Source: Halanaerobium congolense
GTDB taxonomy: Bacteria; Bacillota; Halanaerobiia; Halanaerobiales; Halanaerobiaceae
Direction of reading: 5' to 3'
Assembly: GCF_004366375.1 (NCBI RefSeq)
Contig: NZ_SOEF01000019.1
Location: 1-61,426 of the forward strand
DNA length: 61,426 bases
The notes below the pieces were generated by a model. The model saw only the letters and a program-made list of their open reading frames with translations, was not told the origin of the DNA and made no database searches. This document shows positions 23,917 through 47,411 of the stretch, one piece after another (within the stretch, counting starts at the first letter, position 1; every line of letters starts with the position of its first letter). The position numbers and the translations under genes were made by a program.

Positions 23917-24936
23917 ATGTCTTATAATAAGATACAGGATAATTTTTGGATTGACGAAAAAGTAAGAGGCTGGGATTTTAAAACACGGATGACTGCACTT
24001 TACCTCCTAAACAATCAGCACAGGTTTTCTGAAGGTCTTTATCACCTTCCCCTAAGCTATATTGTAGAAGATACTAAATTAACGAAAAAAGAAATAGATA
24101 AAGCACTTAAAAAGCTCTGCTCTGATAACTTTATTAAATATGACAGAGTAAATTCTATTGTTTTGATCATTAATGCTTTAAAATATCAACCGTTACAAAA
24201 TATTAATCACTGTAAAGCAGCATTAAAAAAATTAGAACAGCTGCCTAAATCGCCTTTATTAAAAGAATTAATTGAAAAAGCTAAACTATATAATCCCAAG
24301 TTCTATCAGCTCTTAAAGAAAAAAAGTCAGAACATAAAATTTCTCCAAATAGCTTTTCAAGAAATTTCAAATAATGACCTTAATTTAACTCAAACTAAGG
24401 GCCTTAGTTTAGATCTAAATAAGGGGCTCAAAAGAGAGCAAAAAGATTCTCAAGCTCAAACTCCAACTCCAGTTCCAATTCTAACTCAAACTCTAGATAA
24501 AAAGGCAGAAATAATTTTTAAAGATAATCAAAACCCAGAATTAAAAAAATTAGAAAAGATGACCTGCTATTTAATCGAGTTAATAGAAAATAATAATCCA
24601 AGAGCACCTCTACCAGCTAAAGATCCAGCAGACTCTCGTTTTAAAAAATGGCTCAAAGAACTGGAAAAACTTCATCGCCTGGGTCCTGTAGGAGCAAATG
24701 CAAATGAAAAAAAAGGTTACAGCTTCCAAGAAATCGAAGCTATTATCAACTTCAGTCAGCAGGATCAGTTCTGGAAAAATAATATCTTAAGTGCCCGTGC
24801 TTTAAGAAAACAAATAATTAAATTGGAAAACAAGATGAAAAGTTCTAAATACTCTCAATCTAATCAAAAAACTGATATGTTAAAAAACCTATATTTAGCT
24901 GCTAAAGAGGAGGAAGATAACAATGGAAAAAACTGA
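23917..24936 (+). CDS. Phage-type replication initiator / DnaD-like protein
   Basis: A 339-residue protein with an N-terminal winged-helix region (NKIQDNFWIDEKVRGWDFKT, then LPLSYIVEDTKLTKKEID) as in phage replisome organisers. A low-complexity linker follows (a TPTPVPILTQT stretch). The ATG at 23917 has AAAGGAT at proper spacing; the GTG at 23881 does not. It overlaps the next gene, a helicase-loader-like protein, the classical phage order. No integrase, repressor or structural gene is nearby, so this is an orphan module. Confidence 0.7.
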   Translation: MSYNKIQDNFWIDEKVRGWDFKTRMTALYLLNNQHRFSEGLYHLPLSYIVEDTKLTKKEIDKALKKLCSDNFIKYDRVNSIVLIINALKYQPLQNINHCKAALKKLEQLPKSPLLKELIEKAKLYNPKFYQLLKKKSQNIKFLQIAFQEISNNDLNLTQTKGLSLDLNKGLKREQKDSQAQTPTPVPILTQTLDKKAEIIFKDNQNPELKKLEKMTCYLIELIENNNPRAPLPAKDPADSRFKKWLKELEKLHRLGPVGANANEKKGYSFQEIEAIINFSQQDQFWKNNILSARALRKQIIKLENKMKSSKYSQSNQKTDMLKNLYLAAKEEEDNNGKN

Positions 24937-25462
24937 AACTATTAAAATTCTTAGTTACTTAAACAGCTGCTATACTAACCGCTTTAAGTTCCCGAAGGTT
25001 AATGATGAAAATGCTAATAAGATGATGATTGAAGTCTGGTATGATTTCTTAAAATACTATGAATACCCGCTGATCACAGCAGCTCTCAAAAAATTAATTA
25101 TCAATCATCCTAAATGGCCTCCTACACCTGGTGAAATAGTTAAAGAAGCAGCTAATCTAAAAAAACCTGGATCTGCTAAAATTACAGGAGGTGAAGCCTG
25201 GTATCTGGCAACAAAAGCTGTTCATCAATACGGTTATTATAATTCTCAAAAAGGAATGGATTCTCTACCCGATTCAGTCAGAGAGGCGGTTCGCAACTTT
25301 GGCGGCTTTGCAGCCCTCTGCCACAGTAAAGATGATAGCTTTACCAAAAATCAGTTTATAAAAATCTACCAGGAAGTTTATCTTAAAAATGAAGATACAG
25401 CCTATTTACCACCAGCATTTAAAGAAAAACTGCTGCTAATCTCAGAAAATGATGAGGTGTAA
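24923..25462 (+). CDS. Phage-type helicase loader-like protein
   Basis: A 179-residue protein whose first 80 residues (LNSCYTNRFKFPKVNDENAN, then LITAALKKLIINHPKWPPTP) match the pattern of phage replicative-helicase loader/inhibitor proteins. The PGEIVKEA stretch is typical. GAGGAGG precedes the ATG, which lies inside the end of the upstream initiator gene. It probably loads the host DnaB helicase onto the initiator complex. Confidence comes from the pattern plus neighbour order. Confidence 0.65.
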   Translation: MEKTETIKILSYLNSCYTNRFKFPKVNDENANKMMIEVWYDFLKYYEYPLITAALKKLIINHPKWPPTPGEIVKEAANLKKPGSAKITGGEAWYLATKAVHQYGYYNSQKGMDSLPDSVREAVRNFGGFAALCHSKDDSFTKNQFIKIYQEVYLKNEDTAYLPPAFKEKLLLISENDEV

Positions 25463-26576: not shown

Positions 26577-27491
26577 TTACTCTTTTGTGTAATAATCATA
26601 AGTTTGTTTTAAACCAGATTTCAGGTCAAACTGAGGCCCCCAGCCCAGAATTTTTTTAGCCTTAGTATTATCTAAAGCTGAATGCCTTATATCTCCTGGT
26701 TTTGCCTCTTTATAGCTCGCTTCAAGCTGATAGGCTGATAATTCATTTAAATCTTCTAGCAGCTGATTTACACTGTTTTGGACCGCTGTGCTGATATTTA
26801 AGAGCTGATTGTCAGCTTTATCTAAGGCTAAGTAATTAGCTTTAACCAGATCGTAGACATGGATAAAATCCCGGCTCTGTTTACCATCACCAAAGATTAC
26901 TGGATCTTCTTCTGCTAAGAGCTTATCTAAGAAGATAGAAACTACTCCACCTTCTCCTTTGGGATCCTGTCTTGGTCCATAGGCATTGGCATAGCGAAAG
27001 ATAGTATATTTTAAATCATATAATTCAGCATACATCTTGAGATAATGCTCGACTGTATGTTTTGTTATTCCGTAAGGTGACATTGCTTTAACTGGATGTT
27101 CTTCAGCAATTGGTAAATGCTCCGGCTCTCCATAGACTGCTGCCGAAGAAGCATAGATTATTTTTGCTGCTCCATACTCTCTACACATTTCTAAAAGATT
27201 GATAGTTCCTAAAATATTATTTTCTGCATCAAAGATAGGGTCTGCAATTGACTGCTGCACATCTATCTGAGCTGCATGATGAATAACATGGCTGATCTTA
27301 TTTTCTTGAAATACTTTTTCTAAGTTCTGGTCTCTAATATCAAGCTGATAGAATTTAGATTTTTTGTTGATGTTTTCTTTTTTGCCTGAGCTTAAATTAT
27401 CTACTATTATTACTTCTTTCCCCTGTTCAATTAGATAATCAGCTATATTGGAGCCGATAAAACCGGCTCCACCTGTGATTAATATCTGCAT
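26577..27491 (-). CDS. UDP-glucose/UDP-GlcNAc 4-epimerase-like (GalE family)
   Basis: A 304-residue extended short-chain dehydrogenase. The NAD-binding motif is ILITGGAGFIGSNIADYL; the catalytic Ser and Tyr/Lys are in YASSAAVYGEP and SPYGITKHTVE (YxxxK), and FGDGKQSRDFIHVYDLV closes the substrate site. It would interconvert UDP-hexoses or UDP-HexNAc in the cytoplasm. Last gene of the polysaccharide locus. A second SDR epimerase at 30729-31685 is closer to uronate epimerases, so this one is more likely Gal/GalNAc-forming. Confidence 0.87.
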   Translation of the reverse strand: MQILITGGAGFIGSNIADYLIEQGKEVIIVDNLSSGKKENINKKSKFYQLDIRDQNLEKVFQENKISHVIHHAAQIDVQQSIADPIFDAENNILGTINLLEMCREYGAAKIIYASSAAVYGEPEHLPIAEEHPVKAMSPYGITKHTVEHYLKMYAELYDLKYTIFRYANAYGPRQDPKGEGGVVSIFLDKLLAEEDPVIFGDGKQSRDFIHVYDLVKANYLALDKADNQLLNISTAVQNSVNQLLEDLNELSAYQLEASYKEAKPGDIRHSALDNTKAKKILGWGPQFDLKSGLKQTYDYYTKE

Positions 27492-27553
27492 TGATTTAAC
27501 ACATCCTAAGATTTAATTTTAATCTAAAAAAACCGCAATAGGGTAGTATACTC

Positions 27554-28825
27554 TTACTTCAGCTTATAATAAATCTCATCCAGTTTCTCTACAGTTTCCT
27601 TAAGCTCATCCTCATAATCCCGGAGTACATAATCTAAATTATCGAGCTCAGAATTATAGACATCAAAGACCTTCTCTAAAAGTTTTAAAATATCATTTAA
27701 GCGGTCTTCTATCTGCTCATCATCTTCCAGCTGATATTCAATTTCCTCTATTTCTGTAAAATAAAGAGGCAGCCTTCTGCTCAATATCTCTTCTAAGTCC
27801 GATATTTCCTCTTTAACGACAGTTAATTCTCCATTGGCTAATTTATACTGCAGCTTATCTCGAATCTGATAGAGGCTCAGCTGAACGTCTTTTAAGAGTT
27901 TTACATTTACCAGATTATTTTTCCTCTGCCCACTATTTTTTAACTCTCTAAAATAGATTAAAAGAGCAAAGAAAACTAAGATAATAATCATAAAAGACTG
28001 AGTTGTAGCAATTTTAGTTAATAAAAAGGCAGTTAAACCAAAGCTGAAGCTGATTAAATAGAGTATCTGCCGGCTCTGTTCCTCATTTAAACCGCTGTCT
28101 AAGAGTATGTGGTGTAGGAGCCTTGAACGAAGCTGAGTAAGATCAAAGTCCTTTTTAAAGATCAGCTGATAAAAGACAATTAAACCATTGATAATTGGAA
28201 TCCCCAGCAGCATTGCCGGTAAGACTAAGGAAATAAAGGTAATACTTTTAACAGCACCGATGATAGAAATCAGTCCCAGCACTGCCCCCACAAACATACT
28301 GCCTGAATTACCGAGTTCCCAGTTTTGATGATTGCGGGCTAAGTATTTAATAATAATTAAACCCAGCAGTAATAATGCTGCTGAAACAACTGTCAGGTAG
28401 CGGCCTAAATCCCAGGCAATAATTAAAATAAATAAAGATGAAATAATAGCAATACCTGAGGCTAAACCTTTTAAGGCATCAAGTAAGTTTAAAAGATTGA
28501 TCATTAAAACAAACCAGACTAAGGTTACTGGAAAACTTAATTCTTCAAAGTAGATAAAACCTTCAAAGGGATTGGTTATGTAATTAACTCTGATCCCAAA
28601 ATAGACGAGATAAGCTACTGCTAAGACCTGCAGCAGTAGCTTTGTTTTAAAGCTAAGATCTTTATAATCATCTAAGAGCCCGACAAGATAAATTAAAGTT
28701 AAGGCTGATAAAAGATGAAAACTGGCTACCTTCTCGACTCCTAAGACTAAAAAGCCAGCAATAAAAATTAAAAAAACTAGTGCTCCACCCAGAGGTATCT
28801 TATTTCTTTTAGCTGAATTCTGCAT
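27554..28825 (-). CDS. Truncated, divergent MraY/WecA-family protein with C-terminal coiled coil
   Basis: A 423-residue polytopic protein of the glycosyltransferase-4 (MraY/WecA) superfamily. It starts right at the family's PxGG loop (RNKIPLGGA), lacking the usual first two TM helices. The Mg-binding LLDDYKDL is kept. The second Asp of the NLxDGxDGL motif is Lys (NLLDALKGLASG), and the GDxGS catalytic Asp is Asn (ELGNSGSMF). An HHILLDSGL block remains. About 110 extra C-terminal residues form a long acidic coiled coil. The ATG at 28825 has AGGTGG upstream. It may be regulatory or structural rather than catalytic. Confidence 0.8.
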   Translation of the reverse strand: MQNSAKRNKIPLGGALVFLIFIAGFLVLGVEKVASFHLLSALTLIYLVGLLDDYKDLSFKTKLLLQVLAVAYLVYFGIRVNYITNPFEGFIYFEELSFPVTLVWFVLMINLLNLLDALKGLASGIAIISSLFILIIAWDLGRYLTVVSAALLLLGLIIIKYLARNHQNWELGNSGSMFVGAVLGLISIIGAVKSITFISLVLPAMLLGIPIINGLIVFYQLIFKKDFDLTQLRSRLLHHILLDSGLNEEQSRQILYLISFSFGLTAFLLTKIATTQSFMIIILVFFALLIYFRELKNSGQRKNNLVNVKLLKDVQLSLYQIRDKLQYKLANGELTVVKEEISDLEEILSRRLPLYFTEIEEIEYQLEDDEQIEDRLNDILKLLEKVFDVYNSELDNLDYVLRDYEDELKETVEKLDEIYYKLK

Positions 28826-28835
28826 AAAAACCACC

Positions 28836-29459
28836 TTATTTTGATTTAAATAATTTTTCTAGAAAAGTTTCTGCTTTGTCATCTGCTTTTTGGTGTTCAT
28901 ATATATCTTCTCGCTTTAGGACCTTAATTCCTGTTTTTATTATTATTTTTAGATCCAGCCAGAGGCTCTGGTTTTCTACATAGTATTGATCTAAGGCTAT
29001 TTTATCTTTAAAAGTACAGTGATCTCTGCCGTTTATCTGGGCACAACCTGTTACTCCCGGTTTTGCCTGATAAACTCCTTTGTTTTTTCTGGCCTGGTGA
29101 AATTCTTTTTCTGCCAGAATTAAAGGTCTTGGTCCCACAAAGCTCATTTCTCCTTTGATGATATTAAAAAGCTGTGGCAGCTCATCTAAGCTCGTTACTC
29201 TTAAAAAGTTACCAAAGCTTGTTATGTAATCTTCTCTATTATCTAAATCACGGCTTGCTTTATTGTCTGGTGTGTGGTGATACATTGTTCTGAATTTGTA
29301 GATTATAAAATCTCTGCCGTACTGTCCTGTTCTTTTTTGTTTGAAGATTGCTGGCCCGTGTGATTCTATTCTAACAATTAGAGCAATTATTATCAATAAA
29401 GGAGATAAAATGATGATTAATAATAGTGAAAGTATTATGTCAAATATTCTTTTGGTCAT
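28836..29459 (-). CDS. Initiating undecaprenyl-phosphate sugar transferase (PHPT family)
   Basis: A 207-residue membrane-anchored sugar phosphotransferase of the WcaJ/TuaA C-terminal type. It has one N-terminal hydrophobic segment (IILSLLLIIILSPLLIII), then KRTGQYGRDFIIYKFRTM, TSLDELPQLFNIIKGEMSFV and the VGPRPL and KPGVTGCAQING signatures. It transfers the first sugar-1-phosphate to the lipid carrier. Short-form size (about 200) as in monotopic enzymes. Presence beside a degenerate WecA-type gene suggests this enzyme starts the repeat unit. Confidence 0.92.
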   Translation of the reverse strand: MTKRIFDIILSLLLIIILSPLLIIIALIVRIESHGPAIFKQKRTGQYGRDFIIYKFRTMYHHTPDNKASRDLDNREDYITSFGNFLRVTSLDELPQLFNIIKGEMSFVGPRPLILAEKEFHQARKNKGVYQAKPGVTGCAQINGRDHCTFKDKIALDQYYVENQSLWLDLKIIIKTGIKVLKREDIYEHQKADDKAETFLEKLFKSK

Positions 29460-29518
29460 TTTATCATCCTTTCTTTAGAAGAGGAGTTTAGTAAAATAAT
29501 CACTTTCTTATGTCTCAA

Positions 29519-30688
29519 TTATTTAAGATTTAATAGTTCCTGATATAACTTATCAGTTTCTTCCACCATATTTTCTACAGTCCAGCTATCATTAACTTTC
29601 TTTTGAGATTTTTCACCCATTTCATTTCTGATTTTTCCATCTTCAATTAAAAGTTTTAACTTTTCTACCATAGCTTCAGTATCTTTCATGGGCACAATAT
29701 ATCCATTTTCACCTTGATCTACTATTTCCCAGGCTCCATCTACATCAAAAGTAACAATTGGTTTTGCAGTTGCTGCTGCCTGAACTAAAACTCTTGGTAG
29801 GCCTTCCCAGAGTGAAGTTAAGATTTTTATATCAAAGATTGAAAAAACATCAGCTATATCTGTTCTATAACCGGTAAAAATTATATTGTTTTGAAGCTTT
29901 AAATTTTTAACTTTTTCTTTTAATTGATCAAACTGAGATCCGTTCCCTACTATTAAAAATTTAACTTCTGGATGATCTGCTATTATCTTCTCTGCTACTT
30001 CTATATAATATTTATAGCCTTTGCGGGGTTCAAGTTTTGAAACCATTCCCACTACAAGATCATCTTCAGCTATCCCTAATTCTTTTTTTAATTTATTAAT
30101 TTTATCCTGATGATTATTGCTGGCATCAATAAAATCAGAAAGTTCCATTCCGCTTCTAATGGTTAAGTAATCTTCTGCCTTACCTACATTAGCTTTGATA
30201 TATTTCTGCTTCATATCTTCACCAACAGTTATAAATTTATCGGTAAATAAGCCGCAGAATCTTTCTATATTTTTAAAGAATTCTCTTTTATGAACAGGTA
30301 TCTGATCAGGAAAGGTAATTCCATGGACTCCGTGAATAATATTTTCTACTCCAGCCATTTTTGCAGCTAATCTACCTAAGACTCCTGCTTTAGCAATATG
30401 GGTATGAACAATCTGATAGTTATTATCTTTGATAATTTTATAAATCTCCATTAATGCTTTAAAATCTTTGACAGCATCAATTTCTCTAACTAAGCTTTCT
30501 ACCTGATGAACATTGATGTGATTTTCGATAGATATCCTTTTTAATATTTCTGATTCTGTTTCTTTACCTGTTAATAAATCAATCTGATATTTATCTTTAT
30601 CTAAACCATTGATCGTAAATAAGGTGTTTTCATCTGCCCCTCCATTTACTACTCTGGTTATAATATGTAAGACTTTTGTTTTTTCCAT
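29519..30688 (-). CDS. GT4-family glycosyltransferase
   Basis: A GT-B-fold glycosyltransferase of about 389 residues. N-terminal ITRVVNGGADENT resembles the GGxE loop; C-terminal blocks are GMVSKLEPRKGY, NIIFTGYRTDI and EGLPRVLVQAAATAKPIV. In the last, the EX7E motif has Gln in place of the second Glu, a variant seen in this subgroup. The second ATG (30688) has GGAG at proper spacing. It would add a sugar to the lipid-linked repeat unit. Donor unknown. Confidence 0.87.
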   Translation of the reverse strand: MEKTKVLHIITRVVNGGADENTLFTINGLDKDKYQIDLLTGKETESEILKRISIENHINVHQVESLVREIDAVKDFKALMEIYKIIKDNNYQIVHTHIAKAGVLGRLAAKMAGVENIIHGVHGITFPDQIPVHKREFFKNIERFCGLFTDKFITVGEDMKQKYIKANVGKAEDYLTIRSGMELSDFIDASNNHQDKINKLKKELGIAEDDLVVGMVSKLEPRKGYKYYIEVAEKIIADHPEVKFLIVGNGSQFDQLKEKVKNLKLQNNIIFTGYRTDIADVFSIFDIKILTSLWEGLPRVLVQAAATAKPIVTFDVDGAWEIVDQGENGYIVPMKDTEAMVEKLKLLIEDGKIRNEMGEKSQKKVNDSWTVENMVEETDKLYQELLNLK

Positions 30689-30728
30689 CTGCATTACTCC
30701 TCGTTAAACTAAATATAAATTATGAAAA

Positions 30729-31685
30729 TTATTTATATAATTCTTTTAAGAATTCAACTTCTCTTGCCAGCCCTTCTTCAAACTCAACCTCAGGTTCATA
30801 ACCGAGCAATTCTTTAGCTTTAGATGTATCGGCTGAAGTATGTTTTACATCCCCTTTAACAACCTGCTGGTATTCTCTATTGGCTTCTTTATCGATCAAT
30901 TCTTCCATTAAATCAATAGCCTCATTTAAAACTACTCTTTTACCATCTCCACCAATATTAAATATTTCGCCTTCAACATCACTTTCTGCAGCTAAGATAT
31001 TGGCTTTAACTATATCATCTACATGAGTAAAGTTACGAGACTGTTTACCATCGCCAAAGACGGTTAATTTTTTATCTTCTAAAATAGCTTTTATAAAAAT
31101 ATGAAAGGCCATGTCCGGTCTCTGTCTTTCCCCAAAGACAGTAAAGTATCTTAAGGATACTGTTGGTACATTAAAATTCTGATGGTATAGATATGCTAAA
31201 TTTTCTCCTGCTAATTTAGAAACCCCATAGGGTGAAACTGGCTGTAATCTATTAGTTTCCTGCATCGGTAATTGATCTGTATCTCCATAAACTGATGAGG
31301 AAGAAGCATAGACAAACTTCTTTATATTACTTTCTTTTGCTGCTTCTAATAACTTTTGGGTGCCTTTGACATTATTATGTGTATAAATCTCAAAGTCTTC
31401 TCCCCAGCTTGATCTAACACCTGCCTGGGCTGCCTGATGGAATATATAATCTACATCTTTTAGTAATTCTTTTAAGTCAAGTTCATTTATATTTTCTTCA
31501 ATTAAAGTAAAGTTTTGATGGTCAATAAATGAATTTATGTTGTTTTCTTTTAAAGAACGATCGTAGTAATCTATAAAACAATCAACACCTATTACCTGGT
31601 GTCCTTCTTGAAGTAATTCTTCTGTTAATGTTGAACCAATAAAACCTGCTGTACCTGTTACTAATGATTTCATGTTCTCATTCAC
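30729..31685 (-). CDS. NAD-dependent epimerase (UDP-glucuronate/UDP-hexose 4-epimerase-like)
   Basis: A 318-residue extended SDR. SLVTGTAGFIGSTLTEELL binds NAD; the active-site segments are ASSSSVYGDTDQLP and SPYGVSKLAGENL (YxxxK), followed by RYFTVFGERQRPDM, the pattern of UDP-GlcA/UDP-GlcNAcA epimerases. It would act on the product of the UDP-sugar dehydrogenase at 37583-38884. Overall the gene lies mid-operon between a GT4 gene and a polymerase-like gene. Specificity is inferred. Confidence 0.85.
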   Translation of the reverse strand: MNENMKSLVTGTAGFIGSTLTEELLQEGHQVIGVDCFIDYYDRSLKENNINSFIDHQNFTLIEENINELDLKELLKDVDYIFHQAAQAGVRSSWGEDFEIYTHNNVKGTQKLLEAAKESNIKKFVYASSSSVYGDTDQLPMQETNRLQPVSPYGVSKLAGENLAYLYHQNFNVPTVSLRYFTVFGERQRPDMAFHIFIKAILEDKKLTVFGDGKQSRNFTHVDDIVKANILAAESDVEGEIFNIGGDGKRVVLNEAIDLMEELIDKEANREYQQVVKGDVKHTSADTSKAKELLGYEPEVEFEEGLAREVEFLKELYK

Positions 31686-31693
31686 CCAGCACC

Positions 31694-32947
31694 TTAGTCA
31701 TCAACTATTGATATCACATTAAAATATGGACTGATTAAAATAAATATCAAGATCATAAAAGTCATTTTATGCCTGATAGCTGTACCAAAATTTGCAGTAA
31801 CCACTGCATAGCCCAAAACTCCAATAGCTAAAAATATTAATAATAATAGAATTCTTTTATTATAAATCTTATCACTTATAACAAAATTTCTTAAAGTATA
31901 TAAAATAATACCTATCAACATAGTTGATTCTAAAAAAGCAAATATGATAAATATATTTGAACTTATGTCCCAGATAAAAGGTGCAAATAAAAAGTACAAA
32001 CTTCTTATAGGTAGATATATTATCATGTCAAAGATATTGTTATAACTAATCCACTCTAAATAGGCTGCTCCACCTGAAGTTCTATATTCCATTTCTCTGG
32101 CAATATAATCAAAACTTAAAAGCGGAAAGATATTAGCTTCAAGTAAATATAGTACTCCAAAAAAACTAAAAGCTAGTCCTAAAATGGAAATAATTTTATA
32201 AATCAATGCACTGTTTTTTACTTTTTTCCAGATAAAATAAACTATAAAAATAAAAATGAAAAGAGGTAAGTTCTGTTTTCTAAGATAAAATATAAAAATA
32301 AAATCTAAAAGAAAAATCAATTTATTTAAAATTATATGTTCTTTAAATTTAAAAAATTGTTTAATTAAATTAAGTGTTAAAAATATTATTAAAGCATCTC
32401 TCATGTTGATGGAAGTAAATATAATAAAACTAGGCCAAAAAACTGAAAGAAAGGCCGCTTTCAAAGCCATTTCTTTATTGAAATCTGTATATATAGAAAT
32501 ATCATAAACTTCTCTGGCTATTAATACCCCAAGCAAGGCATTAATTATTCTGATATTTATTTCATAGGAACCCAAAATAGTATATATAAAAGATACAAAT
32601 AGAGAATAACTTTTAACAGATGTACTTTCAGATATATTATAAAATAAATTTCTGAAATTATATAAATTATTTTTAATTAACAAAGCAGTACTCTGAAACT
32701 GGCCTGTATCCCAGCCATAGGGTAATAACTCAAATGAATAATCTAATATAATAAAAATCATTCTTAATGTAAATGCTATAATAATAAATAAATATAATTT
32801 ATTTTTTGTTTTTGAATATTTATATACAAAAAAAGTATATATTAATATCATCAAAATTATTACATTTATATATTCTAATTGGAATAATATTATTCCAATT
32901 AGAATTGTTGCTAATAAAATTAGTAAATATTTTAGGTTTTTTTTCAT
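31694..32947 (-). CDS. Polytopic membrane protein, probable Wzy-type polymerase or GT-C
   Basis: A 417-residue very hydrophobic protein with roughly 10-12 TM helices. A luminal-type loop after the second or third helix has YGWDTGQFQSTALLIKNN, and near the C terminus is ANFGTAIRHKMTFM, a pattern common in oligosaccharide polymerases of Gram-positive loci. No other polymerase candidate exists in this cluster that also encodes a Wzx flippase, so it is the best Wzy candidate. A perfect 34-bp palindrome lies in its 5' end (32872-32905). Confidence 0.65.
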   Translation of the reverse strand: MKKNLKYLLILLATILIGIILFQLEYINVIILMILIYTFFVYKYSKTKNKLYLFIIIAFTLRMIFIILDYSFELLPYGWDTGQFQSTALLIKNNLYNFRNLFYNISESTSVKSYSLFVSFIYTILGSYEINIRIINALLGVLIAREVYDISIYTDFNKEMALKAAFLSVFWPSFIIFTSINMRDALIIFLTLNLIKQFFKFKEHIILNKLIFLLDFIFIFYLRKQNLPLFIFIFIVYFIWKKVKNSALIYKIISILGLAFSFFGVLYLLEANIFPLLSFDYIAREMEYRTSGGAAYLEWISYNNIFDMIIYLPIRSLYFLFAPFIWDISSNIFIIFAFLESTMLIGIILYTLRNFVISDKIYNKRILLLLIFLAIGVLGYAVVTANFGTAIRHKMTFMILIFILISPYFNVISIVDD

Positions 32948-33066
32948 TTATTAATAATGCTCCCATTTTTATCAATATATTTAAAACATTTCTTAAATTT
33001 ACCTTATAATGGTTGATTTAAATTTTTAAGAAAATATCTTTTTTATCTTATCCGCGCTATTGAAAT

Positions 33067-34944
33067 TTACAAATATTCATGAAGCCATTTTTCGAAAACA
33101 AACAAAGACCATAATTCTCGAGAACGATTTACTTTATTTGTAAAATGATCATTTAAAATATTTTCTATATAATCATAATTAAATAATTTTTCTGATCTTA
33201 TTTGTTCTTCATTCAGTTCATTTAACAAATTAGATTTAAGTTCATTTTTAAACCATTTGTCAATAGGAACTCTAAACCCATGTTTCTTAGCGTTAAATAG
33301 TTTATCAGGAATTAAATCACTAAAAGTATCTTTTAGTATTATTTTTTTATTTTTAGTATTTATTTTATATTTAGCTGGTATTTGAGCTGAAAGTTCAATT
33401 ACATCTTTATGAAGCATTGGCACTCTCGTTTCCAAAGAATTAAGCATGCTAGTCCTATCAACTTTATGAAGCATATCACCTTCTAAAACAACTTTTAAAT
33501 CTGTATATAAAGTTTTATGTAATTCATTTTTCATATCAACTTCATCATAATAATCCTCTATAAAATCTAAACTATCTTCTTGAATATATTGCTTTTGAAA
33601 TAATTGTTTTATTTCTTCATTTCCAAAACCCAAACACATTAAAGACTTGCGTTGATCAAAAACATTTTTATTAGAATTATTAATAACCTTTCTAATCTTT
33701 CTAGTAAAACTAGTTGTGTCAGGCAATTTATAAATGATTTTTTCAATGATATTTTCTCTTAACCATTTGGGTACTTTATTATACAAATTAGAATAATAAT
33801 TGATTAAATATTTATCATATCCTCCAAATAATTCATCCCCCGAATCTCCTGTTAAAACCGTTTTAACATGACCACTTGCAAAATTAGATACCATATATGT
33901 CGGTAAATATGATGGATCTGCAAAAGGTTCATCAATATTCTTTAATATTTTATCTAAATGTTTCAAGATATCTTGATGCTCCAGATACTTAATATGATGA
34001 TTGGTATCATGAAATTCTGCTGCTATCTTCGCCCTTCCACTTTCATCAAATTGTTTATCTCTAAACCCTATAGTAAAAGTATCAATCTTTTTATTAGATA
34101 ATTGAGAAGCAATTCCTGTAATAATTGTTGAATCAATACCGCCACTTAAGAACGTTCCTATTGGTACATCTGCAACCATCGCTTCTTCAACAGCCTTAAA
34201 CATTGTCTCTCGAAGCTTATTTTTACAATCATTATAATCTCTAATTAAAGATTCTTCATTATATTGAACATTCCAATATTGTTTTTGCTCTATTTCTTCA
34301 TTTTTATTAATTTCAATATAGTGACCTGGTTTTAATTTATAAACATTATTGAAAATAGTAAGAGGAGCAGGTATATAAGTCAATCTAAAATATTGATTTA
34401 AGGCTTGTATATTAATTTCTTTCTTTAAAAGGTTTGTAGATAAAATACTTTTTAATTCAGAAGCAAAAATAAAAAAATCATTGTTTTTATGATAATATAA
34501 TGGTTTTTCACCAGCTCTATCCCGAGCTATTATCAATCTATCACTTTTTAAATTATATATAGAAAATACAAACATACCATTCAATTTGTTAAAACTATTT
34601 TCTTTATATTCTTCATAACAATGTAAAACTACTTCTGTATCACTATCTGTATAAAAAGTATGCCCTTTATTTAATAAATCTTTTTTTAAAGATTTGTAAT
34701 TATATATTTCTCCATTAAAAACAATTACTAATGTTTTATCTTCATTAAAAATTGGTTGAGAGCCTGTATCCAAATCAATTATAGATAAACGCCTCATTCC
34801 AAGCCCTATATTATTATTTATAAAAGCCCCATCCTCATCAGGCCCTCTGTGAATTATTTTTTTGTTCATTTCTGAAATGATATTTTCTATTTTATTTTTA
34901 TTAAATCTATTTTTAAATTGATAAAAACCATTTATACCACACAT
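33067..34944 (-). CDS. asnB: Asparagine synthetase-type glutamine amidotransferase (AsnB family)
   Basis: A 625-residue class II amidotransferase. MCGINGFYQF supplies the catalytic Cys2 of the glutaminase half; the synthetase half has the PP-motif FLSGGIDSTIITGIASQ and TGDSGDELFGGYDKY. In polysaccharide loci such proteins usually amidate uronic acids in the repeat unit rather than making asparagine. A UDP-sugar 6-dehydrogenase and a uronate-type epimerase in the same cluster support this. Length and motifs are complete. Confidence 0.9.
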   Translation of the reverse strand: MCGINGFYQFKNRFNKNKIENIISEMNKKIIHRGPDEDGAFINNNIGLGMRRLSIIDLDTGSQPIFNEDKTLVIVFNGEIYNYKSLKKDLLNKGHTFYTDSDTEVVLHCYEEYKENSFNKLNGMFVFSIYNLKSDRLIIARDRAGEKPLYYHKNNDFFIFASELKSILSTNLLKKEINIQALNQYFRLTYIPAPLTIFNNVYKLKPGHYIEINKNEEIEQKQYWNVQYNEESLIRDYNDCKNKLRETMFKAVEEAMVADVPIGTFLSGGIDSTIITGIASQLSNKKIDTFTIGFRDKQFDESGRAKIAAEFHDTNHHIKYLEHQDILKHLDKILKNIDEPFADPSYLPTYMVSNFASGHVKTVLTGDSGDELFGGYDKYLINYYSNLYNKVPKWLRENIIEKIIYKLPDTTSFTRKIRKVINNSNKNVFDQRKSLMCLGFGNEEIKQLFQKQYIQEDSLDFIEDYYDEVDMKNELHKTLYTDLKVVLEGDMLHKVDRTSMLNSLETRVPMLHKDVIELSAQIPAKYKINTKNKKIILKDTFSDLIPDKLFNAKKHGFRVPIDKWFKNELKSNLLNELNEEQIRSEKLFNYDYIENILNDHFTNKVNRSRELWSLFVFEKWLHEYL

Positions 34945-35005
34945 GTAACAATCTCTACCTTTCTTATCCCCGATATATAAACTTTCAATTAAAATCTAGG
35001 TATTA

Positions 35006-36115
35006 TTACTTTTTTAGAAGTAATCTTTTATAAGTAGTTACCAGTGAATCTACCATTTTGTCCAAATCATAATTATCTGCTCTTTTTACACATTTTTTTA
35101 CTATTTTATTATAATAGTTATCATCTTTAATTAATTTATTTATTATATCAGCAAGTTCTTTTTCATTCCCCTGCTCAAATAAAAGTCCAGCACCTTTTAC
35201 AACTTTTCTCAAACCACTAACATCACTTGCAATAACTGGTTTACCTGCTGCCATTCCCTCAACTGCAGCCAACCCAAAACCTTCCCAAAAAGAAGATAAA
35301 ACTACAATATCAGATGTTTTCAAAATTCTTTCTATATCATTTCTGAATCCTAAAAAATGAACTCTATCATTAAGGTTCAGATTTTTCACATATTCCTTAT
35401 GTTCATTCAATAACTTTCCCTCGCCAACTAAAAATAGATGTACATTATTATCTAATTGTTTCAACGCTCTAATCAATGTCTTCTGATCTTTTTGCTCAGA
35501 AAAGCGTCCAACCATCGTGATAAATATGTTGTCTAAATTACATGTAGAACACAATTTTTTTTTTGAATATACTTCAGCTTCGTTAAATTGTTGAATATCA
35601 ATTCCATTTTCTACAATAATGAATTTAGTCTTTTTCTCTACTCCTAACCAGTCAATTAAGTTAGTTTCTGTCTTTTGACTTATTGAAATTACTTTATCAA
35701 ATTCTTTATAAATTAATTTCTCAATAGGTCTAAATAAAATATAATCTCTTCTTCTATAATGAGTGTTATGTTCAGTAAATATCAATTTAAATTTTCTATT
35801 GAATAATGTTTTTGCAGCCAAAGTAGCCCAATACAGAGTAGGAAATAGGTGAGCATGGATAATATCAAAGTCATTATTTTTGATAAATTTTCTAATTAAT
35901 ATAACATTTATCGGACTATAAATATTATCTGCCCTTATAACATTTATCTTAACACCTTGTTTTTTAAGACTTTCTGCAAACACATTATTTTTATCTGTTA
36001 AAAGTAATAATTCTGCTTCTATATTTTCTTTTTTGTTCAAAATAGGAAGAGTATCTTTTATTAGCTTTTCTGCCCCACCTGAACCTAAATTATTGATTAT
36101 ATGTAAAATTTTCAT
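35006..36115 (-). CDS. GT4-family glycosyltransferase
   Basis: A 369-residue GT-B glycosyltransferase. The N terminus has IINNLGSGGAEKLIKDTL; the C-terminal domain has MVGRFSEQKDQKTLI, VHFLGFRNDIERIL and an intact EX7E motif in EGFGLAAVEGMAAGKPVIAS. Cytoplasmic, acting on lipid-linked oligosaccharide. Upstream lies a dead sulfotransferase gene, so this segment of the locus has lost at least one modification enzyme. Confidence 0.88.
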   Translation of the reverse strand: MKILHIINNLGSGGAEKLIKDTLPILNKKENIEAELLLLTDKNNVFAESLKKQGVKINVIRADNIYSPINVILIRKFIKNNDFDIIHAHLFPTLYWATLAAKTLFNRKFKLIFTEHNTHYRRRDYILFRPIEKLIYKEFDKVISISQKTETNLIDWLGVEKKTKFIIVENGIDIQQFNEAEVYSKKKLCSTCNLDNIFITMVGRFSEQKDQKTLIRALKQLDNNVHLFLVGEGKLLNEHKEYVKNLNLNDRVHFLGFRNDIERILKTSDIVVLSSFWEGFGLAAVEGMAAGKPVIASDVSGLRKVVKGAGLLFEQGNEKELADIINKLIKDDNYYNKIVKKCVKRADNYDLDKMVDSLVTTYKRLLLKK

Positions 36116-36134
36116 ATTTAATTCTCCAGTTTAT

Positions 36135-36630
36135 TAAATCTGAATCCCATATTTTGATTTTAATATTTCATAATTCGCATCTAAATCTCGCGAATAAAAT
36201 TCAATATTTAATTTTTCTAAGACTTCTAAAATATTTTTTATCTGCTCTTTAGATAATCTATTTTTCCAGGTAGTTAATGGATCACTATTTTCTTTTTTTA
36301 CATTTGAATCAGAAACAGTTGTCTGGCTTAGTATATTAATCTTATTATATACTGTTATCTATCAAATTAATTCATTAACTGACTCTTTAACTAGACTTTA
36401 GTAAGTAACAAGCAAAGTATTAATACATTTTTCCCATTCTTTCAGAGGAATTAAATAATCATAACACCAGGTTATAGCTATCGGAATTGTTTCTAAAAGT
36501 TCAAGTAGCCAGGTTGTACCCCCCTAGGGCTTCCAGTTATTACTAAATTTTGAGGGTTGTCTATTATTGATCCCAGGTTCCAAATTTTATTTAAGCCAGT
36601 TTTCAATATAATCTTAATTATTTTGTTCAT
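36135..36630 (-). pseudogene. Sulfotransferase pseudogene
   Basis: From the ATG at 36630 the frame reads a sulfotransferase start with NLVITGSPRG. A one-base change in a G-run (near 36522-36528) then breaks it; shifting frame restores GTTWLLELLETIPIAI, so the original PAPS-binding loop was close to SPRGGTTWL. Further on the frame meets stops, and a C-terminal piece (WKNRLSKEQIKNILEVLEKL, ending IQI) remains near 36135-36290. The middle is missing. A full sulfotransferase persists at 48898-49764. Confidence 0.75.
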
Positions 36631-37571
36631 ATATTAAATTTCTCCTTTAAATTATGTAAATTAATATCAATTTCAAAAATTGATAAAATAAAAATAACCA
36701 ACCCTTTATAGTTAACAATATTATTTTTTATCATTTTTTTGGAAAATATTTTTGCTTTATTGTAACTATTGTTTTTATAATATAATTTCGCCATTTCAAA
36801 ATAATAATTATCATAAAGTTTCTTTTTTTCTTTTGGAAATTCATTCAATTCATTTTCCCACTTACTTAAAAATATTTTCCAACCTTTTTCCTTACTATTA
36901 ATATTTCGACTAATTTTATTGTCATGTGAACTAAACTTAACTAAAAATTCATCCACATAATCAATATCATAATTTTTACTTATTCTCAAAAACATATCAT
37001 GGTCTTGGCGACTTAATAATTCAATATCAAATAATCCTACTTTTTGAAAACAGATTTTTTTTACTAAAGCAGTTGGAGTACCTATATAATTCATTTCCAA
37101 CATATCTGTATATATACTTCCATTAACTAATTTAATTTTCTTTTTATGATAAACTTCCCCCGTATTATTTTTAAAACTATACATTCGACAATATACTAAT
37201 CCCAAATTATTATTATTTTTAAACACTTCTATTTGCTTTTTTAATTTTGTGTTAACCCAAATATCATCATCATCTAAAAATGCTATATACTCACCTTCAG
37301 AAGTTTTTATCCCAGTATTCCTAGCAGCAGAACCACCTTTGTTCTCTGTATGTTTCAAATAAACCAAATTATCATTATCGGCATACTTATCCATAAACTC
37401 TTCAGTTTCTTTCCTATACTCACTATCTTCATCATTATCATCAACTACAACAATCTCTATATTATCATAAGTTTGATTTAAAACACTATCAATAGCTCTA
37501 CCCAACATATCAGGCCGCTTATAAGTAGGAATAACTACACTAACTAAAGGATTCTCTTGTTCATTACTCAT
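36627..37571 (-). CDS. GT2-family glycosyltransferase
   Basis: A GT-A glycosyltransferase of 314 residues. The N-terminal VSVVIPTYKRPDMLGRAIDS, the VVDDNDED stretch and the metal-binding AFLDDDDIW are the family's nucleotide-sugar site. RQDHDMFLRIS is the usual acceptor/base segment. The ATG at 37571 has AGGTG 8 bases upstream; an in-frame TTG lies further up inside the dehydrogenase gene. It would add a sugar to the repeat unit. Confidence 0.9.
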   Translation of the reverse strand: MSNEQENPLVSVVIPTYKRPDMLGRAIDSVLNQTYDNIEIVVVDDNDEDSEYRKETEEFMDKYADNDNLVYLKHTENKGGSAARNTGIKTSEGEYIAFLDDDDIWVNTKLKKQIEVFKNNNNLGLVYCRMYSFKNNTGEVYHKKKIKLVNGSIYTDMLEMNYIGTPTALVKKICFQKVGLFDIELLSRQDHDMFLRISKNYDIDYVDEFLVKFSSHDNKISRNINSKEKGWKIFLSKWENELNEFPKEKKKLYDNYYFEMAKLYYKNNSYNKAKIFSKKMIKNNIVNYKGLVIFILSIFEIDINLHNLKEKFNI

Positions 37572-37582
37572 TAATAAAGCAC

Positions 37583-38884
37583 CTACATTCTCCAATAATT
37601 ATATATTTTCTCAGCTTCAACTTTATCAAAAATAGACTTAACATCAATAAATACAGGTTTATCAATATCATCCTTATAAAACTTTTTAAATTCTTCTAGT
37701 TCCATTTCATTATACTGATCATGATTTACTGCAACAACTACAGCATCTGCATCACTAATATTATTAATATCCTGCAGTTCTATTCCATGTTCTCTCACTG
37801 CCTCTTCTGGATCAGCAATCGGGTCTGTCACCTTAACATTAACATGATACTCTTCCAATCTATTAATTAAATCTGCAACCTTACTATTTCTAAGATCAGG
37901 TACATTTTCCTTAAAAGTTAAACCCATTACAAGAACTTTAGATCCATTCACCTTAACATTGGACTCAATCATTTTCTTCACAATTTTTTCAGCAACAAAA
38001 TTAGACATCTGATCATTAATCCTGCGCCCATTTAAAATCAACTGTGATATGTAGCCAAGTTCCTCAGAGCGATATGTTAAATAATAAGGATCAACTCCAA
38101 TACAGTGTCCACCTACAAGACCAGGATAAAAATTGAGGAAATTCCATTTGGTCCCTGCAGCTTCTAAAACTGATTGAGTATCGATATCCATCTTATCAAA
38201 AATCATAGATAACTCATTCATAAAAGCAATATTAACATCACGCTGGGAATTTTCAATTATTTTTGAAGCTTCTGCTACCTTAATAGAAGGAGCTCTATGT
38301 ACTCCAGCTTTAATGATGCTCTCATAAATTTTAGCAATAACTTCTAAACTCTCTTCATCCATACCAGAAACAACCTTAACAATAGTTTCAACAGTATTAA
38401 CTTTATCACCAGGATTAACTCTCTCAGGTGAATAACCCACTTTAAAGTCTTTACCACAAATTAAACCTGATTCTTCTTCAAGTATTGGTACACAAACTTC
38501 TTCTGTAACTCCCGGATAGACTGTTGACTCATAAACGACAATTGATCCTTTTTTTAAGTTTCTCCCCACTGTTCTACTTGCACCTGTTACAGGGTCTAAA
38601 TCTGGAACATTGTTTTTACCAACAGGAGTCGGAACAGCAACTATATGGAAATCTGCCTCTTTTAAATCCTTCTCATCAGCAGTATATTTTATATTTGAAA
38701 TTTTAGCTAATCGATCTCTGCCAATTTCATTTGTTGGATCTTCCCCATTTTTGTATTTACTTATTTTGTCTTGATTGATATCAAATCCGATTATATCTAT
38801 TCCATTTTCAGCAAATGCCACAGCTAATGGTAGACCAACATATCCCATTCCTGTGATTGCTATTTTGATGTTGTTAATATTCAC
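37583..38884 (-). CDS. UDP-N-acetylhexosamine 6-dehydrogenase (TviB/WbpO type)
   Basis: A 433-residue nucleotide-sugar dehydrogenase. NAD-binding IAITGMGYVGLPLAVAFAE, central GYSPERVNPGD, the catalytic Cys in PGLVGGHCIGVDPYYLTYR and the C-terminal VMGLTFKENVPDLRNSK are all present. The pattern is closer to TviB/WbpO than to UDP-glucose dehydrogenases. It would make a UDP-HexNAc uronic acid, a likely substrate for epimerase and amidation. The start is GTG with GGAGG at ideal spacing. The defence-like island begins directly upstream. Confidence 0.9.
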   Translation of the reverse strand: MNINNIKIAITGMGYVGLPLAVAFAENGIDIIGFDINQDKISKYKNGEDPTNEIGRDRLAKISNIKYTADEKDLKEADFHIVAVPTPVGKNNVPDLDPVTGASRTVGRNLKKGSIVVYESTVYPGVTEEVCVPILEEESGLICGKDFKVGYSPERVNPGDKVNTVETIVKVVSGMDEESLEVIAKIYESIIKAGVHRAPSIKVAEASKIIENSQRDVNIAFMNELSMIFDKMDIDTQSVLEAAGTKWNFLNFYPGLVGGHCIGVDPYYLTYRSEELGYISQLILNGRRINDQMSNFVAEKIVKKMIESNVKVNGSKVLVMGLTFKENVPDLRNSKVADLINRLEEYHVNVKVTDPIADPEEAVREHGIELQDINNISDADAVVVAVNHDQYNEMELEEFKKFYKDDIDKPVFIDVKSIFDKVEAEKIYNYWRM

Positions 38885-38934: not shown

Positions 38935-40635
38935 TTAAACTACATCAACTCTAAACCCAACTTCCTCCAACTTCTCTTCTTCTCTATTATCCAACCCAGG
39001 CAAATTAACAAAGAGATTCTTCTTCGTTCTACTCAAAGCGACATAATAACGTCGATGTGACTCTGTATTTTCTAAATCAGTATCACAAATAAAAGTCATA
39101 AAACATTCTTTTTCTTCTGATGGGATAATTAACAGTAAATTATCAAATTCGGCACCCTTTGCTTTATGGATTGTTCTATAAAAGCTGTTATCATTTTCAA
39201 GATTTATAGTCAGTGCAACTTCATTATATTTCAAATTACTATATAAATCATGTGGCCCACCACTATTTCCAATTCGCCTGCTGATATCACTGGTATCAAA
39301 ATAATTATAAAGATAATCATTATGAAACTTTTTAAGAGTTAAATTTTTATATTCATCATAACAATTAATTAATCTCTGTAAATTTCTAAATCCATCTTTT
39401 TCAGTAAAATTACTGCTTTTGCGATAGGCTCTAAGCATATATCTTAAACCATCTTTAAAATTTTTATCTGCCGCAGATTCCACAGCTTTAATTATATTGA
39501 AAAGTAATTCCCGCCTTTTAGAATTGCTATCCTCTGTTAATAAATCCCTTAAGCTCATAACTTCTGGATATTCTTCCAGCTTAAATCGCATCATATTAGT
39601 GGCTTTATTTGTATAACTTAAAGTATAAAAATCTTCTTCCAGCAGGTTATCAACATACTCATAAGCAGAATTAAAATTCCCTGTTAGAATTTTAGGAACT
39701 TCTCCACTTAAATTATTAGGACTGCTCTGCTGAAAATTACCATTAGATCTCAAATTATTTAAAACACCAATAATCTCTTCGGTACTCCTGCGGTTATCTT
39801 CAATCTTATATAAAAGCATATCATTTAATTCAAAATTTATAAAACTTTCTACACTGGATCCTAAAAATTCATATATTGATTGAGCAGTATCTCCAATTAC
39901 ACCAACAATAGTCTCTTTTTTTGCCAGTTTTTTTATAATTTCTGTCTGAACAGGAGTAGTATCCTGAAATTCATCAACAAAAATATATGGAAACTTCGCT
40001 CTTAATATTTCTCTAACTTCATCATATTTTTTAATAATTTTATGGCTTAAAAATAATACATCATTATGACTGAGGAAACCCTGCTGCCAGCACAATTTTT
40101 TATACTCAATTATTGAATCAAATTTGACCGCAGATTCATAAGGAAGTTTTAATTTCCACTTTAACTCTTCATCCTCAAAATAAGTAACTGTTTTCTGCAT
40201 ATCTTTCTGCAGCTGTGCATAATCTCCTACATACTGATTTGTTTGTCTTAACCATTCCTTTAAAATGCTAATTCGAGCAATAAAATCCTGATGACCATCA
40301 ATTTCAGCAATATTTAAATTGTATTTATCTTCCAGAAGCCAGCTATAAGGCTTAATAACATTCTTATATAAAAAACTGTGTATGGTACTAATTTCAACAT
40401 AATCCAAAGAATTTTCAAGTCTATCAGCTAAGGTTTCAACTCCAATATTAGTATAAGTAATACAGGCAATTTTTCTGGCTTTTTTCAATCGTTTAGAATT
40501 TTTTATCACATTTTGAATATGATTAACCAAAAATCTGGTTTTACCTGCTCCAGGACCAGCACAGAGTTTAAAATGGTTTTCTGTTCCAATTAATTGATCA
40601 CTGTCTTCTAATTCTATGGCTCTGGATAAATCCAT
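38935..40635 (-). CDS. UvrD/Rep-like helicase, GajB-like
   Basis: A 566-residue superfamily 1A helicase. Walker A is AGPGAGKT (residues 26-33), followed by CITYTNIGVETLADRL, the DEFQDTTPVQTEI motif II, a QSIYEFLGS motif III, TIHKAKGAEFDNLL (motif V) and YYVALSRTKKNLFV (motif VI). It overlaps the end of the OLD-nuclease gene by 22 bases, the arrangement of the Gabija defence pair (GajA-GajB). GajB proteins sense phage nucleotide depletion or DNA ends and switch on GajA. A class 2 OLD/UvrD pair outside strict Gabija is the alternative. Confidence 0.8.
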   Translation of the reverse strand: MDLSRAIELEDSDQLIGTENHFKLCAGPGAGKTRFLVNHIQNVIKNSKRLKKARKIACITYTNIGVETLADRLENSLDYVEISTIHSFLYKNVIKPYSWLLEDKYNLNIAEIDGHQDFIARISILKEWLRQTNQYVGDYAQLQKDMQKTVTYFEDEELKWKLKLPYESAVKFDSIIEYKKLCWQQGFLSHNDVLFLSHKIIKKYDEVREILRAKFPYIFVDEFQDTTPVQTEIIKKLAKKETIVGVIGDTAQSIYEFLGSSVESFINFELNDMLLYKIEDNRRSTEEIIGVLNNLRSNGNFQQSSPNNLSGEVPKILTGNFNSAYEYVDNLLEEDFYTLSYTNKATNMMRFKLEEYPEVMSLRDLLTEDSNSKRRELLFNIIKAVESAADKNFKDGLRYMLRAYRKSSNFTEKDGFRNLQRLINCYDEYKNLTLKKFHNDYLYNYFDTSDISRRIGNSGGPHDLYSNLKYNEVALTINLENDNSFYRTIHKAKGAEFDNLLLIIPSEEKECFMTFICDTDLENTESHRRYYVALSRTKKNLFVNLPGLDNREEEKLEEVGFRVDVV

Positions 40636-46253: not shown

Positions 46254-47411
46254 TTAATCAGGTGGATAATATACCATCCGACCACCAATTGCCAGCCTTT
46301 CCTGATCAACAAATTCTTTAATATCCCAGGAATCATCAATTTTAGTCTTCAGGTCATCACTCAGCTCCAACGCCGGCTCACCAACTTCTGTTCCATAAGC
46401 AGCAAGTTTAGTCAGCCACCAGTCTTTAGATTTAATCACACCAAAATTATCATAAGCTTTATCAAAACTATCTTCACTAAAAGAATCGCCAGTTTTAATT
46501 TCATCTATCAGCCCACTTAAAAGCTCCATTGACCGATCATGAAAAAGTTCCCTGCCGCCATCGAAAAGTTCATAAATTTCTGCTGCAAATTCAGGGGTTC
46601 TTTTGAAATATAACTTTTCAAAGCCGTGGTCAGCTGCTAAATCATAATTAACTATATCACCTAACTTCATTGTATCGATAAAATAGCCCCTCTGCTTATA
46701 ACAGCGGGTAAAAGGTTGATAACCAATTGGAAGCACATCCTTAACTTTCTTTTCAGCTTTAAGATTAATAGTTAAATCATCTACCCTTTTATATAAAACA
46801 GCATGAGAACCAAAATCATTTTCTCTAATATCTCTTTTGCTAACAGGCTGATATTTTCCATTGCCCATATGTTTACAACAGGCAAAGAATAATGCTACTG
46901 CAAGATCATCCGTTATATCTAGATACTGAGTTCTAATGCCATAATGTTGAGCAATTACATAAGAAAATATATCACAATAATTCCAATCTAAATTATGTTT
47001 TAATTCATTAATCATATTTGAAAAAGCTATTATTTTTAATTGAGCAGTAAAGAATTCTAATTCTCTTTCTGCTTCTGTCTCTAATCCAGCAAGTTCTCGC
47101 CCTAAAGAAGATCTGCATTTAGATCCATTATTTTTTCTGCTGTAATCTTTTGCTTCACCCCTATAAAAAGTTTTTATAGGAGAATTCATTCCATATTTAA
47201 CTACTATTCCATGAGGATATCTGACTGTACTACCATTGGTAAACAAATCTGCATATAAATCTTCTCGTGCATTACGTCCTAAAGGAAAAACATCTTTACT
47301 AGCCATAGTAGCTCTTCTTGCAGTTGATACATTTTTGTTTCGTTCTTTATATTCCTGCTGCAGTGCTATAGTTCTCTTTAACTTATCAAGTTTAATAACT
47401 TTTTTAGTCAA
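46254..47411 (-). CDS. FRG-domain protein
   Basis: A 385-residue protein carrying an FRG domain: TFYRGEAKDY (81-90, the F/Y-R-G core), AQHYGIRTQYLDITDDLAVA (154-173) with FFACCKH after it, and QPFTRCYKQRGYF (232-244). FRG domains occur in many mobile and defence-associated bacterial proteins; the biochemical role is poorly known. The start is TTG with AGAGAGG at good spacing. The gene begins 18 bases after the flippase stop codon, so it is physically in the polysaccharide operon, and it precedes the 3-TM gene. Confidence 0.8.
   Translation of the reverse strand: MTKKVIKLDKLKRTIALQQEYKERNKNVSTARRATMASKDVFPLGRNAREDLYADLFTNGSTVRYPHGIVVKYGMNSPIKTFYRGEAKDYSRKNNGSKCRSSLGRELAGLETEAERELEFFTAQLKIIAFSNMINELKHNLDWNYCDIFSYVIAQHYGIRTQYLDITDDLAVALFFACCKHMGNGKYQPVSKRDIRENDFGSHAVLYKRVDDLTINLKAEKKVKDVLPIGYQPFTRCYKQRGYFIDTMKLGDIVNYDLAADHGFEKLYFKRTPEFAAEIYELFDGGRELFHDRSMELLSGLIDEIKTGDSFSEDSFDKAYDNFGVIKSKDWWLTKLAAYGTEVGEPALELSDDLKTKIDDSWDIKEFVDQERLAIGGRMVYYPPD

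What the first reader, a model, noticed from the sequence alone, without database searches (positions are those of the whole stretch)
27554..28825. MraY/WecA relative missing TM1-2 and catalytic Asp residues, with an added coiled coil
PxGG loop is at residue 12 or so instead of after two TM helices; GDxGS is GNSGS and DGxDGL is DALKGL. About 110 coiled-coil residues are added at the C terminus. A pseudoenzyme fused to a scaffold, encoded next to the true initiating transferase, would be an unusual regulator of repeat-unit initiation.
Basis: partly seen in the sequence, partly recalled or inferred. Interest (0 to 1): 0.6.

Follow-up and report, generated by a model that had tools for sequence, protein, structure and literature searches.

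The report
Conserved inactive sugar-lipid transferase look-alike
Inside a bacterial surface-sugar operon sits a membrane protein that looks like the enzyme that starts sugar-chain synthesis but has lost the half of its active site that binds the sugar donor; a distant relative keeps the same broken version, also beside a working starter enzyme, so it is probably a helper or regulator rather than junk.

Summary
The ORF is real (window 27554-28825, minus strand; ATG with a Shine-Dalgarno overlapping the upstream gene's stop). It belongs to the polytopic phosphoglycosyl transferases (WecA/TagO/MraY, PF00953), but one helix (TM1, not two) and cytoplasmic loop 1 are absent. It keeps the residues on the lipid-phosphate side (DD, K, Q, N..N, HH) and has lost the uridine/Mg2+ side: DGLDGL is DALKGL, GDTGS is GNSGS, and the YNFNPAxIFMGD loop is gone.

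This is conserved. A Halanaerobiaceae MAG has a full-length orthologue (46-47% identity) with the same truncation and further Asp losses; substitutions concentrate at third codon positions. In both genomes a small monotopic PGT lies immediately upstream; in the MAG it is the only one detected.

The coiled-coil tail was not added to a dead enzyme. Three genomes of another family in the class carry a homologous tail on full-length TagO-like proteins with catalytic motifs intact; those three have no monotopic PGT, whereas their five sampled family members without the tail do. My reading: a tailed polytopic initiator lost its catalytic role to a monotopic PGT and survives as its non-catalytic partner. 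Inactivity is strongly supported; the partner/regulator mechanism is inferred.

The parts
27554..28825 (-). TM1-less, degenerate polytopic phosphoglycosyl transferase with C-terminal helical domain (423 aa from ATG; 426 aa from GTG 28834)
28831..28837 (-). Shine-Dalgarno AAGGTGG overlapping the stop codon (TAA 28836-28838) of the upstream monotopic PGT, 5 nt before ATG 28825; suggests translational coupling
   Evidence: sequence
28784..28795 (-). PLGG loop (residues 14-17), which follows TM1 in intact relatives and is here at the N terminus
28667..28672 (-). retained Asp pair D55 D56 (MraY D117/D118 position)
28628..28642 (-). retained K65...Q69
28460..28498 (-). NLLNLLDALKGLA: N113, N116, D119 kept; second Asp of DGxDG replaced by K122 (E in the orthologue)
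28298..28312 (-). GNSGS: Mg2+-binding Asp of GDxGS replaced by N176 (S in the orthologue); preceding YNFNPAxIFM loop lost
28187..28189 (-). N216 in place of the Asp of PIxDT
28109..28123 (-). RLLHH: last two His of HxHH kept, first His lost
27557..27919 (-). C-terminal helical domain (about 120 aa), homologous to the tail of intact TagO-like PGTs in three genomes of another family of the class
28836..29459 (-). small monotopic PGT (PF02397), intact SLDELPQLF motif; the likely true initiator
26577..38884 (-). surrounding polysaccharide gene cluster on the same strand: NAD-dependent epimerases, GT4/GT2 glycosyltransferases, asparagine-synthase-like amidotransferase, polytopic protein, UDP-sugar dehydrogenase

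Best explanation
A catalytically inactive polytopic phosphoglycosyl transferase, kept by selection as a non-catalytic membrane partner of the small monotopic PGT encoded just upstream. Proposed history: a TagO-like initiator with a cytosolic helical tail started repeat-unit synthesis (the intact tailed forms). In the lineage of the window and its orthologue a monotopic PGT took over the chemistry, and the old initiator lost TM1, loop 1 and its UDP-sugar/Mg2+ half-site but kept the fold, the lipid-phosphate half-site and the tail. Proposed action: it sits beside the monotopic PGT, possibly still holding undecaprenyl phosphate, and its tail gathers or regulates the cytosolic machinery. Shown here by sequence comparison: loss pattern, conservation, tail homology, adjacency, genome-wide PGT inventory. 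Inferred: lack of activity, lipid binding, contact with the monotopic PGT, regulatory effect.
For: Orthologue with same truncation and lost Asp, 46-47% identity end to end. Codon-position divergence 0.47/0.26/0.64, non-synonymous distance 0.47 against 0.44 for the neighbouring monotopic PGT, synonymous sites saturated: constrained protein. Of 49 columns near-invariant in 35 intact relatives, 22 are kept in both (GG, DD, K, Q, N..N, GLA, GxxGS glycines, HH, G..Y) and 22 are lost in both, including the whole YNFNPAxIFMGD segment. In MraY D117 contacts the lipid phosphate, D265 binds Mg2+ (PMC4790310, PMC5039524), and D196/F262/K70 help form the uracil pocket (PMC6606608). B. subtilis MraY needs D98, D99, K116, N171, D174, D231, H289, H290 (PMC5039524). 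Monotopic PGT immediately upstream in both genomes, the only one detected in G032, where the only other polytopic PGT is MraY. Intact tailed PGTs occur in G054, G055, G057, which have no monotopic PGT, while the five other sampled genomes of that family have one and no tail (p about 0.018). Precedent: EpsW activates the monotopic PGT EpsZ, apparently by direct contact (PMC12802240).
Against: Only two pseudo members are known, one on a 4.7-kb MAG contig. In G032 a dispersed repeat (36 matches in that genome) separates the two genes, so tight coupling is not conserved. The two monotopic PGTs are hardly closer to each other than to others in the class (55% against 53%). The five tailed proteins are not shown to be one clade, only not rejected (p-AU 0.246; long branches). 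AlphaFold models were too poor to help (pLDDT 46 and 63).
Confidence: 0.5

Rival explanations
1. It pairs with the cell's own intact polytopic PGTs (TagO or MraY), forming inactive or retuned heterodimers, and thereby throttles wall or teichoic-type synthesis in favour of the polysaccharide.
For: MraY is a dimer in crystals, micelles and membranes (PMC4790310, PMC5039524), and the window's genome has intact TagO and MraY.
Against: G032 has no detectable intact TagO, only MraY. The gene is inside a polysaccharide operon behind a monotopic PGT.
Confidence: 0.15
2. It is still a transferase with a rebuilt active site (other donor, other metal ligands), since DD, K, N..N and HH remain.
For: Retained DD/K/N/HH columns; strong constraint.
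Against: The Mg2+ Asp, the second loop C Asp (uracil pocket), the loop D Phe/Asn/Pro-Ala, the PIxDT Asp, the RR pair and TM1/loop 1 are all lost in both orthologues. Replacement of the WecA D156 position abolished function of a Coxiella homologue (PMC5843353); in G032 that position is Glu.
Confidence: 0.1
3. It has been reused for another lipid-linked step, for example handling undecaprenyl-pyrophosphate sugars for the flippase or polymerase, or recycling carrier lipid.
For: Lipid-phosphate side kept while the nucleotide side is lost; located among Wzx/Wzy-type genes.
Against: No positive sequence evidence for any such activity; the window also has its own Polysacc_synt flippase gene.
Confidence: 0.12
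4. A decaying remnant of a displaced initiator with no function.
For: Loss of TM1 and of the nucleotide half-site; rare (2 of 38 order genomes).
Against: Open 420-430-codon frames in two divergent genomes, third-position bias, constraint like that of the neighbouring enzyme, and conserved tail.
Confidence: 0.08

Closest known systems
WecA/TagO polytopic phosphoglycosyl transferases (PF00953; TIGR02380 as the best NCBIfam hit, far below cut-off)
   Same: Profile match, GG loop, DD pair, K/Q, N..N, GxxGS glycines and HH kept
   Different: No TM1 or DxPxxR loop, no Mg2+ Asp, no DGxDG second Asp, loop D lost, extra C-terminal domain
Tailed TagO-like PGTs of three genomes of the same class (L035, L036, L037)
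   Same: Homologous C-terminal helical domain in the same place; polysaccharide gene setting
   Different: They are full length with all catalytic motifs, and their genomes have no monotopic PGT
EpsW-EpsZ of Myxococcus (non-catalytic activator of a monotopic PGT, PMC12802240)
   Same: Proposed role: a non-catalytic protein acting on the initiating monotopic PGT, encoded in the same locus
   Different: EpsW is a soluble response regulator acting on a large PGT; here a degenerate polytopic PGT beside a small one

Membership tests
Polytopic PGT superfamily (PF00953), by descent | Profile match over the core domain | tested here: met
   E 4.3e-22, 79 bits against cut-off 27, residues 41-193; the orthologue also passes, 67 bits
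Active polytopic PGT | TM1 plus cytoplasmic loop 1 (DxPxxR) before PxGG | tested here: not met
   Absent in window and G032; a single helix and loop 1 present in intact rows; no room upstream
Active polytopic PGT | Asp pair (MraY D117/D118) | tested here: met
   D55 D56 in both orthologues
Active polytopic PGT | Mg2+-binding Asp of GDxGS (MraY D265) | tested here: not met
   N176 in window, S in G032; Asp in at least 97% of the 35 intact rows
Active polytopic PGT | DGxDG of loop C (WecA D156/D159) | tested here: not met
   DALKG in window, EGLEG in G032
Active polytopic PGT | HxHH/HHH of loop E | tested here: inconclusive
   Last two His kept, first His replaced by Leu in both
Active polytopic PGT | Transfer of sugar-1-phosphate to a polyprenyl phosphate | not testable with these tools
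   Needs an enzyme assay
Tailed TagO group (this report) | Homologous C-terminal helical domain | tested here: met
   hhalign E 2.9e-6; real sequences score above all block and heptad-phase shuffles, though only just for the window's own tail
Non-catalytic partner of a monotopic PGT | Physical or functional interaction with the PGT | not testable with these tools
   Only adjacency and genome inventory

The most novel reading that the evidence does not exclude
Initiator handover: a polytopic PGT is replaced by a monotopic PGT yet retained as an undecaprenyl-phosphate-holding cofactor or sensor for it. In the boldest form, the monotopic PGT's re-entrant membrane helix occupies the place of the missing TM1, giving a hybrid poly/monotopic initiation complex.
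Probability: 0.15. Interest if true: 0.8.

Novelty: new variant of a known kind. Interest (0 to 1): 0.5.

Why it matters
Undecaprenyl phosphate is scarce and shared between wall, teichoic acid and capsule pathways, and how initiation is controlled after translation is incompletely understood (stated in PMC12802240). A conserved transferase that kept the lipid side and lost the nucleotide side of its active site, next to a working PGT of the other superfamily, would be a ready test case for lipid-carrier sensing or channelling. A table in PMC10942596 lists polytopic PGTs as PGT domain only, and my literature searches for PGT pseudoenzymes found none; the library searched is open-access only, so this is not proof of absence.

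Tried and rejected
Missed upstream start or frameshift: rejected, no TM1-coding frame upstream in the window, and none noted in the G032 intergenic stretch. Decayed pseudogene: rejected on codon-position bias and the orthologue. Recently added coiled coil: rejected, homologous tail on intact relatives. A known domain in the tail: no Pfam family above cut-off, only chance coiled-coil hits in PDB sequences. Structure: AlphaFold on 4 sequences (pLDDT 46) and on the tail (pLDDT 63) too weak for fold searches, which I therefore did not run. Viral contigs gave only two distant WecA-type genes and no tail relatives. Plasmid records gave only partial matches of about 28-37% identity, the annotated ones named MraY family. 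Tree placement of the pseudo pair is unreliable because of long branches.

Full report
WHAT IS THERE. The minus-strand ORF 27554-28834 encodes 426 aa from GTG or 423 aa from ATG 28825. The ATG is the better start: AAGGTGG lies 5 nt upstream and overlaps the TAA stop (28836-28838) of the preceding gene. The frame upstream is full of stops, so no N-terminal helix is hidden. Pfam PF00953 matches with E 4.3e-22, and the best NCBIfam hits (WecA, archaeal MraY) lie far below their cut-offs. Residue numbers below count GTG as 1.

TOPOLOGY. Hydropathy scans find one hydrophobic helix before the PxGG loop in the same genome's TagO and in the full-length relatives whose first helix is detected (the scan misses it in L037, where the translation I used was started inside that helix), and none before it in the window protein or in its orthologue. 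So TM1 and loop 1 (DxPxxR) are missing, not TM1-2. The protein then begins in what is a cytoplasmic loop in its relatives, with three basic residues before the first helix, which fits an N-in, C-in arrangement and leaves the tail cytosolic (inference).

ACTIVE SITE. In 35 intact rows, 49 columns are at least 97% identical. Both degenerate proteins keep 22, lose 22, and 5 are kept in only one. Kept in both: GG, DD (55, 56), K65, Q69, N113, N116, GLA, the glycines of GDxGS, HH (241, 242). Lost in both: DxPxxR, the second Asp of DGxDG (K122 or E), the segment YNFNPAxIFMGD with the Mg2+ Asp (N176 or S), the Asp of PIxDT, RR, and the first His of HxHH. In MraY, D117 is tied to the lipid phosphate and D265 to Mg2+ (PMC4790310, PMC5039524), and K70, G194, L195, D196 and F262 form the uracil pocket (PMC6606608). 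The lipid side is therefore kept and the nucleotide/Mg2+ side lost. That division is my mapping of motifs, not a solved structure.

IT IS CONSERVED. In 61 genomes searched (own plus 60 relatives) the one strong full-length match besides the window itself is G032 (47%, E 1e-113). The 84,980-genome scan returned a matching record, PWDW01000038.1, a Halanaerobiaceae MAG (46%). It has EGLEGL and GSSGS, the same early PGG, and the same tail. Codon-position divergence is 0.47/0.26/0.64 with saturated synonymous sites and non-synonymous distance 0.47; the adjacent monotopic PGT gives 0.44. Only 2 of 38 genomes of the order carry it, so it is an accessory gene.

THE TAIL. A profile of the tail finds it clearly in 5 of 59 genomes of the class (three further hits near E 0.002-0.007 look like chance) and, outside the class, in none of the genomes in a 398-genome draw from the phylum. 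The three besides the pseudo pair (G054, G055, G057) are full-length TagO-like proteins with intact DD, DGLDGL, GDTGS and HxHH. Tail homology between the groups: hhalign E 2.9e-6 with a shared Y.....NLxY motif. All real pairs beat all shuffles that preserve heptad phase or 7-residue blocks, clearly for the orthologue and the intact forms, narrowly for the window's own tail (16.3 against 16.1 bits). No Pfam family fits. A weak model suggests a helical bundle. A single clade of all tailed proteins is not rejected (p-AU 0.246) but not shown either, with long branches.

GENOME CONTEXT. Upstream is a small monotopic PGT with an intact SLDELPQLF motif; around it are epimerases, GT4 and GT2 transferases, an amidotransferase and a UDP-sugar dehydrogenase, and elsewhere in the window Wza-, Wzz- and Wzx-type genes. 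In G032 the monotopic PGT upstream of the pseudoenzyme is the only PF02397 gene detected, and the only other PF00953 gene is MraY. The three genomes with intact tailed PGTs have no PF02397 gene, while their five sampled family members without the tail have one or two (Fisher p 0.018, a small sample noticed after looking). The window's genome also keeps an intact TagO next to ATP-synthase genes and an MraY.

INTERPRETATION. The tailed intact PGT and the monotopic PGT look like alternative initiators; the pseudoenzyme looks like a former tailed initiator retained beside the monotopic one. I judge lack of transferase activity very likely (about 0.85), and a non-catalytic partner role with the monotopic PGT the best single mechanism (0.5). 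Regulation of monotopic PGTs by a non-catalytic partner has an experimental precedent, EpsW-EpsZ (PMC12802240). What the protein senses or recruits is unknown; undecaprenyl-phosphate binding is a prediction from the retained residues.

LIMITS. Two sequences of the degenerate form, one from a MAG; no usable structure model; no metagenome search; the genome scan used two short peptide patterns only, so more orthologues may exist; the two monotopic PGTs are not specially close to each other; in G032 the two genes are separated by a dispersed repeat. The exclusivity pattern rests on eight genomes of one family.

Noticed in passing
38935-42662: A complete Gabija-type defence pair (GajB-like UvrD helicase E 6e-196, GajA-like OLD nuclease E 1e-281) sits beside the polysaccharide cluster.
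   Followed up: partly
L034 135-266 and 1973-2103: In the orthologue's contig the degenerate gene is flanked by two direct copies of a roughly 130-bp dispersed repeat that has 36 matches in that genome.
   Followed up: partly
31694-32947: 417-aa polytopic protein with no Pfam or NCBIfam match inside the polysaccharide operon; possibly the polymerase.
   Followed up: no
46254-47411: FRG-domain protein with weak matches to a candidate defence family (PDC-S15), next to a 599-aa protein without any Pfam or PADLOC match (44429-46228).
   Followed up: no
24923-25462: Protein with a phage G39P-type helicase loader/inhibitor domain (PF11417), next to unclassified small plus-strand ORFs.
   Followed up: no
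33067-34944: Asparagine-synthase-like amidotransferase close to the XrtA/PEP-CTERM eps_aminotran_1 model (547 bits, below its 817 cut-off) in the operon.
   Followed up: no
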